16,666 nucleotides of DNA, from contig MU631487.1 in assembly GCA_026770615.1 (NCBI GenBank), positions 83,693 to 100,358 of the forward strand, in the 5' to 3' direction. The position numbers were made by a program, and so were the translations under genes. Below the pieces are notes generated by a model. It made no database searches, was not told the origin of the DNA, and was given only the letters and a program-made list of their open reading frames with translations. Shown here in pieces: positions 1 through 10,376 of this stretch (position 1 is the first letter of the stretch; each line of letters opens with the position of its first letter). Source of the stretch: Pavlovales sp. CCMP2436 (lineage: Eukaryota > Haptophyta > Pavlovophyceae > Pavlovales).

Positions 1-220
1 CATGTGCGTGCCCGCTCTCCTCACCGCACATCATCTCACTTGTGCATGTGCGTGCCCGCTCTCCTCACCGCACATCATCTCACTTGTGCATGTGCATGTC
101 CGCTCTCCTTACCCCACATCATCTCACTTGTGCATGTGCGTGCCCGCTCTCCTCACCCCACTCTCGTACTTGTGCATGAGCGTGCCCGCTCTCCTCACCG
201 CACATCCGATCTCGCATTCC
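1..220. repeat. 44-bp tandem minisatellite, about five copies
   Basis: Units start at 1, 45, 89, 133 and 175. Each begins CATG(T/A)GC(G/A)TG followed by a (C/T)CCGCTCTCCT core. Units 1-3 are 44 bp with few substitutions, unit 4 is 42 bp, and unit 5 decays near 215. Open frames through it exist only because the unit lacks stops, and they give a low-complexity Cys/His/Ser/Leu repeat. It lies upstream of a terminal exon with a good splice acceptor, so it is probably intronic. Confidence 0.9.
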
Positions 221-382
221 TACGCGCACTGCCTGCTCTCACTGCCTGCTCCCACTGCCCACTCACGCTGCTTGCTCGCCGCACGCGCAGCTCATCCCCC
301 CTCCCCCTCCCCTTAAATAATAGTTTTTGTAACCCCCCCCCCTTGGCAGCTCACCCCCCCTCCCTTCTCCCCTCTTTGACAG
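221..382 (+). other. C/CT-rich probable intron 3' end with acceptor
   Basis: This is a pyrimidine-rich stretch with two long C runs (about 331-340 and 354-360). It ends in CTCTTTGACAG at 372-382. The strong polypyrimidine tract and terminal AG fit a 3' splice site feeding the exon at 383. No coding sequence is seen in it. Confidence 0.5.
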
Positions 383-2455: not shown

Positions 2456-3521
2456 ATGACACCCCCGAGAGTGTGCTCGCTGCTCGCGCACGCCTGCTGC
2501 CTCGGTCTGGTTGTCACGATGCGTACCCCTACGGCAACGCTGCTCGCGCTGAGCGCCGCCGAGGTACACAGGCAGCAGCGGCCGGTCAGCGCGTCAGTCA
2601 GAGAGCCGTCAACTGTCATGTGTCTGACCAGCCTTAGCGGTGGGGACGGTATCCGTGTGCTCTGCAAAGGTCCCTTGATCAGAGTGTTTCTCAACACTTG
2701 GGTCCGGTGGAGACCTGTCAGTGGACGGACGTATTTCTAGATATTTACGCACACACACACGCACGCACGCACGCACCCACACACACACACACAGGCGTCC
2801 ACACACACACACACAGGTGCGCGCACTTGGCGACGGCGAAGTCGTTGTCCGTGACGGCGTGCTCGGTCCAGAGTTTGTGCGCGGCTGCGCCGCGGCGGTC
2901 CGCGGGCTGGACGGGTCGGTCTTTGCGCCGTTTGGGACCGGCCGGCGAGACGAGCCCGGCCCATCGGTATCGGAGCGGCTGCGCGGTGACCACTGCGCCT
3001 GGTTTGACGAGCGGGGGGCACTCGACAGCGGCCCGTCTGGATGGCAGCAATCGGGCGATCAGATTGCCCGATTGCAGCCTCGATTGCCCGAGCTGGCCGA
3101 GCTTTTCGCGAACTTTGACGCAATCCGGCTCGAGCTCAACGAAGCGTGCTTCCTGTCCCTCAATTCTTTGGACTGTCAGCTCGCCCGCTACCCTGCGGAT
3201 GGCGTCAGCGGCTACCCAAGGCACGTCGACGCACTGCGCACGCGCGGCAGCGTCGCGGAATCTGGCTCTCGGCGGCGTGTCATCACGTGCATCGTCTACC
3301 TAAACGAAGGCTGGGCGGTGGAGCATGGAGGCGAGCTCAGAATCTGGGGCGCCGCCGACATGGCGGGAACCATCGTCGACGGGGTCGGGGTGATGGCACC
3401 TCCGAGGTGCGATATCGTCCCTGCGCTTGGCCGCCTCGTCCTGTTCAGCAGCGTAGCGGTCCCGCACGCAGTCCTCCCGTCTTGCGCGCAGCGCCACGCG
3501 GCGACGGCGTGGTTCTGCTAG
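2456..3521 (+). CDS. EGLN/PHD-type prolyl 4-hydroxylase (2OG-Fe(II) oxygenase)
   Basis: Proposed join of exon 1 (2456-2563, 36 codons) and exon 2 (2817-3521) gives 270 residues. The intron is phase 0, GAG|GTACAC...CACACAG|GTG. Exon 2 carries the double-stranded beta-helix core. The iron ligands are H172 and D174 in GYPRHVD, then H253 in PHAVLPS. R262 in QRHAATAWF should bind 2-oxoglutarate. RVITCIVYLNEGW and HGGELRIW are characteristic of EGLN/PHD enzymes rather than collagen P4Hs. Known members hydroxylate a proline in HIF-alpha or, in protists, Skp1, coupling O2 to proteolysis. The substrate here is unknown. Exon 1 has two hydrophobic patches and could be a targeting signal. It was chosen because exon 2 lacks an early ATG and only this frame joins in phase. 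Exon 2 is secure; exon 1 is moderate. Confidence 0.8.
2564..2816 (+). mobile_element. Intron formed by a dispersed repeat (element copy 1, introner-like)
   Basis: This 253-nt segment from GTACAC to CACACAG is the predicted intron of the prolyl hydroxylase. From about 2585 it is homologous to 10019-10207 (reverse strand), including an identical 23-nt block (2640-2662 against 10120-10142). It also shares GGACGGACGT and the CTAGA-A-T-(T)TA-(CA)n tail. A weaker copy is at about 7575-7705. A hairpin (AGTGTT 2683-2688, AACACT 2693-2698, loop TCTC) is kept in position. The (CA)n run at 2750-2815 serves as the tract before the acceptor. No ORF is present. Homology is seen directly; that the insertion created the intron is inference. 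Confidence 0.6.
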
Positions 3522-5854: not shown

Positions 5855-6004
5855 GGACTCGCGCCTGAAGGTGCTAAGCCCGACCCATACCCCCCGCAGC
5901 CCCTGCATCCTAGCGTGACCCAAGCTTGCTGCTGGGGCCGCCAGGACTGCTTTGCCGCCGGTGCAGAGTCCTCCACCGCCCGACCAGGCGTAGGGAGGCC
6001 CCGA
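5855..6004. mobile_element. Short dispersed element, second family, copy 1 (150 bp)
   Basis: It starts GGACTCGCGCC exactly after the left 16-bp direct repeat and ends just before the right one. The first 130 bp or so match 9751-9915, from GGACT(C/T)GCGCC through CTGAAGG(T/C)GCTAAGCCC and CCAGGACTGCTTTGCC to CCGCCCGACCAGG. A 15-bp indel and a few substitutions separate the copies. It has no ORF, no terminal inverted repeats and no poly-A tail. A 16-bp variable-type duplication fits retrotransposition of a SINE-like RNA. I could not identify convincing Pol III A and B boxes. Confidence 0.65.
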
Positions 6005-7157: not shown

Positions 7158-7204
7158 TTGGTCTTTTTAAACGTCACTTCGGACCAAGGGAGTACAGCGC
7201 TGCC

Positions 7205-7577
7205 CAGGTTATGTGGCACTCTTCGTTTTTTTTTGGCGCGAGTTCCAACATTTTCGAAAAAAAATTGCACAAGATAACAGAACGCGGAGAGAGGTACAAC
7301 CGATTTCAAGTTTTTAGACCGATTGGGGATTTTCTTTCGTCGGATTTCCTGCGGCGAATCCATATTTTGGGACCGGCAAGATTCTTTTCCTGTCAGTTTC
7401 TTGGATCGACCAATGATATAAATTGCATGTTGGATATAGCTTAAACCGTCTTGGATCGACCAATGAGCTCAAATCGACCTACAGTCGACAGGCGGTGAGA
7501 ATAGCCATGCAGGAGTAAATAAGTGTAGCGCAAACAAAAAATGACTCGCGCAATATAAAAACGAAGTGTGCCACATT
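7205..7577. repeat. Inverted repeat pair of about 38 bp, 290 bp apart
   Basis: The left arm at about 7206-7246 (ATGTGGCACTCTTCGTTTTT, then GCGCGAGT) matches the reverse complement of about 7541-7575 (ATGTGGCACACTTCGTTTTT, then GCGCGAGT) with few differences. The enclosed 330 bp carries no gene. The arms could be terminal inverted repeats of a small non-autonomous DNA element. The right arm abuts the next dispersed element at 7575. Confidence 0.55.
7399..7466. repeat. 18-bp direct repeat, 50-bp period
   Basis: TCTTGGATCGACCAATGA occurs exactly at 7399-7416 and 7449-7466, inside the inverted-repeat pair. The intervening sequence is AT-rich, and no function is evident. Confidence 0.7.
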
Positions 7578-7705
7578 TGTCGACAGTCGTGTGTCTGATT
7601 AGTCTTAGCGGGGAGGACGGTATCTGGGGGCTCGGGAGCTGATCCCAGTTTTACCTGGGAGACCGCAAACGGGACCGGATGTTCTTGTAGATATTTACAC
7701 AAATA
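7575..7705 (+). mobile_element. Dispersed element copy 2 (diverged introner-like relative)
   Basis: It shares GTGTGTCTGA, CTTAGCGG, GGACGGTATC and GTAGATATTTAC with the intron at 2564-2816, in the same order and spacing. At the position of that intron's hairpin it has a different-sequence hairpin: TCCCAG (7643-7648) with CTGGGA (7655-7660), loop TTTTAC. It ends near CCTGGGCAG, an AG in the right place for a 3' splice site, but no flanking exons are recognised. Confidence 0.5.
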
Positions 7706-7782
7706 ACCTGGGCAGCGCTGTATTCAGACCCGTGGCTTGAGCTTGCCGATTTCTCACGTAAAAATGGTAGCTTTCGTGAAGA

Positions 7783-9750: not shown

Positions 9751-9915
9751 GGACTTGCGCCAGAAGCAACCTGAAGGCGCTAAGCCCGCCTCATACCCCC
9801 CGCAGCCCATGACAAACGTGCGTGCATCCTAGCGTGACCCAAGCTCGCTGCAGGGGCCGCCAGGACTGCTTTGCCACCGGTGCAGAGTCCTCCACCGCCC
9901 GACCAGGACTGCTTT
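9751..9915. mobile_element. Short dispersed element, second family, copy 2
   Basis: It starts GGACTTGCGCC and matches 5855-6004 over most of its length, with an extra 15 bp near 9810 and a duplicated CCAGGACTGCTTTGCC near its 3' end (9868-9883 and 9903-9918). No target-site duplication is visible. It runs straight into a CTGACTGT minisatellite. Confidence 0.65.
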
Positions 9916-10018: not shown

Positions 10019-10207
10019 CTGTGTGTGTGTGTGCATAAGATTCTAGTTAAACGTCCGTCCCCGGGAGGATCTCACTGAATTTAAGTGTTGAAAAACACTC
10101 AGATCCAGGGATCCACCCTGAGCACACGGATACCGTCCCCACTGCTGATCAGTTCAGCCACACGACGATCGACGACTGACGACTCTCGACTGGCGCGCTG
10201 ACCGACC
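10019..10207 (-). mobile_element. Dispersed element copy 3, inverted (introner-like family)
   Basis: Read on the minus strand it aligns with the intron at 2564-2816: GGTCAGCGCG near the 5' end, an identical 23-nt block (10120-10142), an AGTGTT/AACACT hairpin (10084-10089 with 10094-10099), GGACGGACGT, CTAGAATCTTA and (CA)n ending CACACAG. Between the shared blocks the sequence has diverged. The minus-strand 5' edge reads GAG|GTCGGTCAGC, which could be a donor, but no flanking exons are recognisable. Confidence 0.65.
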
Positions 10208-10376
10208 TCCACTGCTCTCCCTCGCGTCGTCTGGAAATGCAGCACCGTCTGCGAGCGCGGCCCACCTTCGCGCATCCCAAACATTACTTCCTCACTAGCC
10301 TGGCTCGCATATGTTGAGATTTTTGCCCTGGGGGGGCAAAAACCACAAATTTGCGCGGCTTATTTGCTGGCCCATT
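10208..10376. other. Spacer, no gene seen
   Basis: A short unassigned spacer between the inverted element and the proline-rich repeat ORF. It contains a GGGGGGG/CCCC-rich patch at 10329-10340. Confidence 0.4.

What the first reader, a model, noticed from the sequence alone, without database searches (positions are those of the whole stretch)
2564..2816. An intron that is itself a copy of a dispersed repeat (introner-like element)
The only intron of the prolyl hydroxylase gene matches, over most of its length, an inverted copy at 10019-10207 (including a 23-nt identical block) and a weaker copy at 7575-7705. Repeat ends and splice sites nearly coincide: homology begins about 20 nt after the GT and ends at the (CA)n-CAG acceptor. 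Introner elements that generate introns in bulk are known in several algae (Micromonas, Aureococcus and others). Three copies within 8 kb suggest a large family in this genome, possibly an undescribed one.
Basis: partly seen in the sequence, partly recalled or inferred. Interest (0 to 1): 0.8.

Follow-up and report, generated by a model that had tools for sequence, protein, structure and literature searches.

The report
LINE retrotransposon copies that became introns
In an Arctic haptophyte alga, the intron of a hydroxylase gene is almost entirely a recent, shortened copy of a retrotransposon, and a second gene shows the same thing independently, so ordinary retrotransposition can apparently create new introns.

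Summary
Intron 2564-2816 is 184 nt of a dispersed repeat (2570-2753) plus a CA-rich tail. The genome, inferred to be Pavlovales sp. CCMP2436, holds 1,537 near-matches to the repeat core and 448 exact 3' ends; reversed controls gave 0. The repeat is the 3' end of a LINE: copies share one 3' end, start at many 5' points, and belong to reverse-transcriptase elements. Homologues run straight through LSAAE|VRALGDG, supporting the 2564/2816 junction; the deposited protein fits the same acceptor but a donor 54 nt upstream. A second gene (WDR18, L061) has a 149-nt intron that is wholly such a copy, of another subfamily, and the deposited protein has exactly that junction. So LINE insertions made at least two introns. 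It does not look like a dedicated introner: of 30 copies taken in contig order, 1 is an exact intron, 8 lie in or at the edge of probable introns, and for 21 no such context was found (5' flank not held for 5 of the 30). No RNA evidence was available. New variant of a known kind.

The parts
2456..2563 (+). Exon 1 of the 2OG-Fe(II) oxygenase gene (36 codons, ends ...LSAAE)
   Evidence: Spliced protein 270 aa; LSAAE|VRALGDG is contiguous in P0002 (LSACEVRALGDG), P0003, P0004, P0005 (LT..E-V.A.G.G) and P0007 (LAPSEWTALGRG)
2564..2816 (+). Intron (GT-AG, phase 0, 253 nt) made of a 5'-truncated LINE copy
2564..2569 (+). GTACAC, the only 5' part of the intron without homology to the LINE; holds the donor GT; may be a diverged target duplication (AGGTACAC at 2562-2569 against AGGTGCGC at 2815-2822, 6 of 8) or filler
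   Evidence: Read; a duplication is not shown
2570..2753 (+). LINE 3' end, truncated at its 5' side, 95% identical to family member L004
2741..2748 (+). ATATTTAC, the conserved LINE 3' terminus; candidate branch-site region (inferred only)
   Evidence: Shared by copies; branch use not tested
2749..2816 (+). CA/CG-rich tail ending in the acceptor CAG
   Evidence: same layout, (AC)n-GCAG, in L061
2817..3521 (+). Exon 2: 2OG-Fe(II) oxygenase domain (PF13640), stop included; single copy in the genome apart from two distant paralogues
   Evidence: HxD (RHVDA) and distal His (VPHAV) present (motif meaning recalled)
7577..7704 (+). Older copy of the same LINE family, inserted in one arm of a 54-nt inverted repeat; filled site with about a 2-nt target duplication
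   Evidence: With 7577-7704 set aside the arm matches its partner 7190-7243 at 49 of 54 positions
10026..10267 (-). Third copy, older, 74% identical to L004

Best explanation
The intron was made by one insertion of a 5'-truncated LINE into the coding sequence of the hydroxylase gene, at GAG|GTG. Shown from sequence: the intron is LINE 3' end plus CA tail with 6 nt left over at the 5' side; the element belongs to a LINE family with reverse transcriptase; the flanking exons join into a conserved protein; the same happened independently in WDR18. Inferred: target-primed reverse transcription copied the 3' end of the LINE RNA into the exon and left a very short target duplication. The LINE 3' end brings most of an acceptor in every sense copy (ATATTTAC as possible branch region, then a CA tract), and the target supplies the final AG. 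The donor GT is whatever lies at the truncation point: filler or target sequence here (GTACAC), the LINE's own GTGGGG in WDR18. A copy that is spliced out exactly leaves the protein unchanged and is kept; copies in exons that cannot be spliced are lost. The family makes introns by chance among many other insertions, not as a specialised introner.
For: LINE identity: one 3' end, variable 5' starts, from 35 nt to beyond 1.6 kb; RVT_1 E=2.3e-18 in L075 and 1.1e-13 in L080, best solved relatives include R2 and LINE-1 ORF2; the stretch from the end of the RT to the young 3' end is colinear in two copies, L064 and L067. Window intron: single-copy gene; junction matched by 5 homologues; deposited protein P0001 fits the same acceptor. 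Second case: L061 intron 1413-1561 is entirely LINE plus (AC)n-GCAG; the spliced ORF is 477 aa from its Met; P0016 has the same junction, and P0017 to P0021, including Diacronema lutheri P0018, are contiguous there. Different subfamilies by a marker motif. Recent: the window copy has 2 substitutions in 110 nt against the majority sequence; 8 of 50 copies have none, indels ignored. Short shared strings at the two ends: mean 5.05 nt against 4.25 in permuted pairs, 12 of 40 copies with 6 nt or more against 4.05, 0 of 1000 permutations as high. Filled site at 7577-7704.
Against: No RNA evidence. P0001 is reproduced exactly by a donor at 2510, not 2564, so the model disagrees with me there or two donors exist. 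P0016 is marked partial and lacks segments that homologues have, so these models are not proof of splicing. Gene structures of relatives were not seen: P0002 and other 'lgn' proteins may come from transcript assemblies, so intron absence there is not shown. The window's own target duplication is unclear. Permuted pairs do not control for similar base composition of the two flanks of one site. The test for splice-compatible open frames did not discriminate.
Confidence: 0.87

Rival explanations
1. An older, short intron was already there and the LINE jumped into it, replacing or swelling its content.
For: LINE copies do lie inside probable ordinary introns: L051 in sense, L045 and L050 in antisense, with 60 or more nt of other intron sequence. 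Three antisense copies (L036, L048, L059) have their 3' end 6-9 nt from a donor as I read it.
Against: In the window only 6 nt at the 5' side are not LINE, and in L061 none. Such remnants are too short to have been introns, unless the rest was deleted precisely.
Confidence: 0.08
2. A specialised introner family: this element has evolved to insert into exons and be spliced, with many introns genome-wide.
For: Two exact introns from two subfamilies; 9 of 30 copies in or at the edge of probable introns.
Against: 1 of 30 copies in contig order is an exact intron; the other genic copies sit in introns with other sequence or in antisense; 5' ends are scattered truncations.
Confidence: 0.15
3. The gene is a pseudogene broken by the LINE and the 'intron' is not spliced.
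For: No RNA data here; without the intron no in-frame ATG precedes the domain (read).
Against: Exon 2 is open for 234 codons with HxD and distal His present; exon 1 ends in the residues that homologues have; in WDR18 the deposited protein has the LINE-intron junction.
Confidence: 0.05

Closest known systems
Introners (introner elements), surveyed in Gozashti et al. 2022, PMC9860276 (section 7 read; other passages by term search)
   Same: Repeat copies whose ends coincide with splice sites in unrelated genes; alga; joining without change of the protein; splice sites recruited partly from element, partly from target.
   Different: There, most are called consistent with DNA transposons, some with 3-9 bp duplications and/or terminal inverted repeats, and families kept had at least four introns; [quoted passage not shown] Here an RT-bearing LINE family, scattered 5' truncation, CA tail, 2 exact introns found. 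The main text has no hit for 'haptophyt' or 'Pavlov', though Chrysochromulina is a figure example; supplements were not seen.
Single transposon-derived introns: p-SINE1-like intron of rice CatA and maize Ds (passages and reference entries in PMC3443670 and PMC3151243; originals not read)
   Same: One insertion of a mobile element gives one intron; the CatA case is a retroelement (SINE).
   Different: Plants; isolated cases. Here a young LINE family with two independent, exact cases in a protist.
LINE / non-LTR retrotransposons (R2, LINE-1)
   Same: RVT_1 domain, shared 3' end, 5' truncation, short simple-repeat 3' tail (general features recalled).
   Different: Clade not assigned; no endonuclease found; very short target duplications; CA tail.

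Membership tests
LINE (non-LTR retrotransposon) | Reverse transcriptase of the RVT_1 type | tested here: met
   L075 2.3e-18, L080 1.1e-13; R2 and LINE-1 among the best solved chains. L075 and L080 are about 85% and 76% identical in DNA to L064 over their main shared block of 1.64 kb; the RT core itself was not seen on a copy that also carries the young 3' end
LINE (non-LTR retrotransposon) | Constant 3' end with variable 5' truncation | tested here: met
LINE (non-LTR retrotransposon) | Target site duplications | tested here: inconclusive
   Short shared strings above permutation; about 2 nt at the filled site 7577-7704; not clear in the window copy
LINE (non-LTR retrotransposon) | Endonuclease domain | tested here: inconclusive
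   None among the eight ORFs scanned; upstream parts partly not held or N
Introner | Introns in unrelated genes that are copies of one another, ends at splice sites | tested here: met
   Window intron and L061 intron
Introner | Family of at least four such introns (cut-off used in PMC9860276) | tested here: inconclusive
   Two found; 30 copies in contig order and 19 loci examined
Introner | Copies concentrated in genes | tested here: inconclusive
   9 of 30 in or at the edge of probable introns; no genome-wide expectation computed
Introner, DNA-transposon type | Fixed element ends with terminal inverted repeats | tested here: not met
   5' ends differ from copy to copy
Introner | Intron absent at the site in close relatives | not testable with these tools
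   Only proteins of relatives were available; no relatives of G000 are held

The most novel reading that the evidence does not exclude
An RNA-propagated introner: the LINE's 3' end is a portable splice module. In sense it carries ATATTTAC plus a CA tract that needs only a target AG to be an acceptor; in antisense its end reads GTGTGTAAATAT, a donor-like sequence, and three antisense copies lie 6-9 nt from a donor as I read it. The family would then be seeding introns across a haptophyte genome now, with the reverse transcriptase known.
Probability: 0.25. Interest if true: 0.78.

Novelty: new variant of a known kind. Interest (0 to 1): 0.62.

Why it matters
Introners in the survey that I read look mostly like DNA transposons, and how RNA-copied elements could make introns has stayed unclear. 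Here the source element, its reverse transcriptase, its copy number and two exact, recent introns are in one genome. That makes intron birth by retrotransposition testable by comparing strains and by minigenes, and suggests that an ordinary LINE with a splice-friendly 3' end may be enough.

Tried and rejected
Rfam at E up to 1 and a tRNA search of the window found nothing, so a tRNA- or snRNA-derived SINE is not supported. Phage records: no match. Viral contigs for P0002: none. Pfam found no domain in four ORFs of the 3' half of the LINE, and a presumed RNase H stretch had no credible solved relative, so RNase H stays a reading by eye.

A test whether each copy could be removed as a GT-AG intron leaving an open frame did not discriminate: of 31 copies (L001 and the 30), 5 could not be tested, and besides L001 and L061 six passed (L037, L043, L046, L047, L049, L054). 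L001 passed only with the acceptor at 2794, because the test asked for 150 open bases upstream, beyond the start codon.

Antisense copies near donors (L036, L045, L048, L049, L050, L059, and L085 outside the sample) were considered as further new introns. L036, L045, L050 and L059 have about 60 to 200 nt of other intron sequence, so an older intron is likelier; L048 and L049 were not settled. Exon boundaries were read by eye unless backed by Pfam (L061 WD40, L036 Myb, L045 ThiS; L085 RIIa) or by homologues (window, L061). The joined pieces of L049, L050 and L059 gave no Pfam family. A plain GC3 filter also flagged ORFs within 250 nt of L035 and L054 in the sample and of L004, L006, L009, L023 and L028 outside it, which the codon score did not support within 150 nt; these were not followed. 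Three more CA-tailed copies (L083-L085) gave no further exact intron in the short stretches held. In one search, 10 of the 29 loci L002-L030 had no exact 3' motif and were dropped; of the 19 kept, 3 (L009, L013, L026) are the same copies as sample loci.

Paper searches. That I know of no LINE-made introner family and no introner paper on this species rests on these and on the passages or sections seen; no supplements were read.

Full report
What the window is. Its hydroxylase protein is identical, apart from the exon junction, to P0001, T492DRAFT_841056 of Pavlovales sp. CCMP2436, and a second gene matches another protein of that strain. I infer that the genome is that Arctic haptophyte; the published assembly is longer, 165.4 Mb (PMC9756366, section 6 read; other passages).

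The repeat is real and abundant. A search with 2585-2816 gave 41 matches after scoring 40 of 1,988 candidates. A 25-nt 3' end occurs exactly 148 times, a 15-nt one 448 times, and the 20-nt core 1,537 times within 3 mismatches, with 0 hits for each reversed pattern.

The repeat is the 3' end of a LINE. Aligned copies stop at the same place, ATATTTACACAC with a short CA tail, and start at different points from 35 nt to more than 1.6 kb upstream. Longer, related copies carry reverse transcriptase: RVT_1 in L075 (2.3e-18) and L080 (1.1e-13), with R2 and LINE-1 ORF2 among the best solved chains. The stretch from the end of the RT to the young 3' end is colinear in L064 and L067. L075 and L080 are about 85% and 76% identical to L064 over their main shared block, so the RT is from close relatives; I did not see the RT core on a copy with the young 3' end. 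The family is young: 8 of 50 copies, two of them short, show no substitution against the majority sequence of the last 110 nt, indels ignored.

The intron. Exon 1 is 2456-2563, exon 2 2817-3521. Joined, they encode 270 residues with a 2OG-Fe(II) oxygenase domain. Of the 15 proteins found I aligned seven; P0001 is the same gene and P0006 is too short, and the other five (P0002-P0005, P0007) run straight through the junction (LSAAE|VRALGDG against LSACEVRALGDG, LTDAEVRALGEG and the like). Donor 2564 therefore fits better than the donor at 2510, which reproduces P0001 exactly but would drop LSAAE. The gene has no second allele in the assembly, only two distant paralogues (45% and 37%). Of the 253 nt, 6 at the 5' side lack LINE homology; then come 184 nt of LINE and the CA-rich tail that ends in the acceptor. 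The window copy has 2 substitutions in 110 nt against the majority sequence.

A second, independent case. One search cut out the first 30 of its 148 copies in contig order. One of them, L061, sits in a WDR18 gene. Intron 1413-1561 of L061 begins GTGGGGACGG, the LINE's own sequence, and ends (AC)n-GCAG. Removing it and an ordinary first intron gives a 477-residue WD40 protein. The deposited CCMP2436 protein P0016, marked partial, has exactly this junction, SPCEHS|VFAGTAAG; Diacronema lutheri P0018 and P0017, P0019, P0020 and P0021 are contiguous there. By a marker motif the copy belongs to a different subfamily from the window copy, so these are separate insertions.

How general. In the 30, a codon score with cut-off 12 (highest value in shuffled sequence 9.6) found coding sequence within 150 nt of 8 copies: L045, L049, L050, L051, L052, L055, L059, L061. 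L036 (Myb domain across the joined exons) and L048 were added by eye. L055 lies just upstream of a probable start codon. That gives 1 exact intron, 8 copies in or at the edge of probable introns, 1 near a start, and 20 without detected context; for 5 of those 20 the 5' flank was hardly or not held. Among the 19 further loci analysed, all with copies of 296 nt or more and 3 of them repeats of sample copies, the codon score found none near coding sequence; a cruder GC3 filter flagged some ORFs (see Tried and rejected). So the family looks like a general LINE in which a minority of truncated copies have become introns.

Mechanism. The ends of copies share short strings more than permuted ends do (mean 5.05 against 4.25 nt; 12 of 40 with at least 6 nt against 4.05 expected; 0 of 1000 permutations as high), though similar local composition was not controlled for. 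The copy at 7577-7704 sits in one arm of a 54-nt inverted repeat; with it set aside the arms match at 49 of 54 positions, and the duplication is about 2 nt. In L061 the string shared at both ends is CAG (read). A very short duplication at an AG gives the upstream exon its AG and the CA tail its acceptor AG, and exact splicing restores the frame. This part is inferred. That ATATTTAC serves as branch region and the CA tract as acceptor tract is a hypothesis.

Literature. Gozashti et al. 2022 (PMC9860276: section 7 and passages) describe 548 introner families, most consistent with DNA transposons, and say that some earlier ones may be RNA-propagated; families kept had at least four introns. Transposon-made introns such as rice CatA (p-SINE1-like) and maize Ds appear in PMC3443670 and PMC3151243 (passages and reference entries only). 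I found no paper on LINE-made introns in haptophytes with the searches.

Limits.

Noticed in passing
Window 2817; L036, L045, L050, L051, L052, L059 (two), L061 (two): In 8 of 10 acceptors that I read by eye the next exon begins with GT (mostly GTG), so many introns here may lie at AG|GT. My choice of boundaries may favour this; a whole-genome table could show whether introns here arise by insertion at AGGT.
   Followed up: partly
L036, L048, L059 (antisense): Antisense copies of the LINE have their 3' end 6-9 nt inside a donor as I read it; reversed, the LINE end reads GTGTGTAAATAT, which is donor-like. Either a target preference or donors supplied by the LINE.
   Followed up: partly
Window 7190-7725: A 54-nt inverted repeat pair (arms 7190-7243 and 7544-7725) with an older LINE copy nested in the right arm; looks like a small DNA transposon.
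   Followed up: yes
Window 5864-5988 and 9770-9907: Two copies of another dispersed repeat, 90-96% identical (families D15 and D7).
   Followed up: no
Window 1-247: Tandem array of units of about 44 nt (family D2).
   Followed up: no
Window 2456-2563 against P0001: The deposited protein T492DRAFT_841056 fits a donor 54 nt earlier than the homologues suggest and so lacks the conserved LSAAE residues.
   Followed up: yes
L036:1274-1332 and L047:1934-1992: A further dispersed repeat, 91.5% identical over 59 nt, lies beside LINE copies; in L036 within the probable intron.
   Followed up: partly
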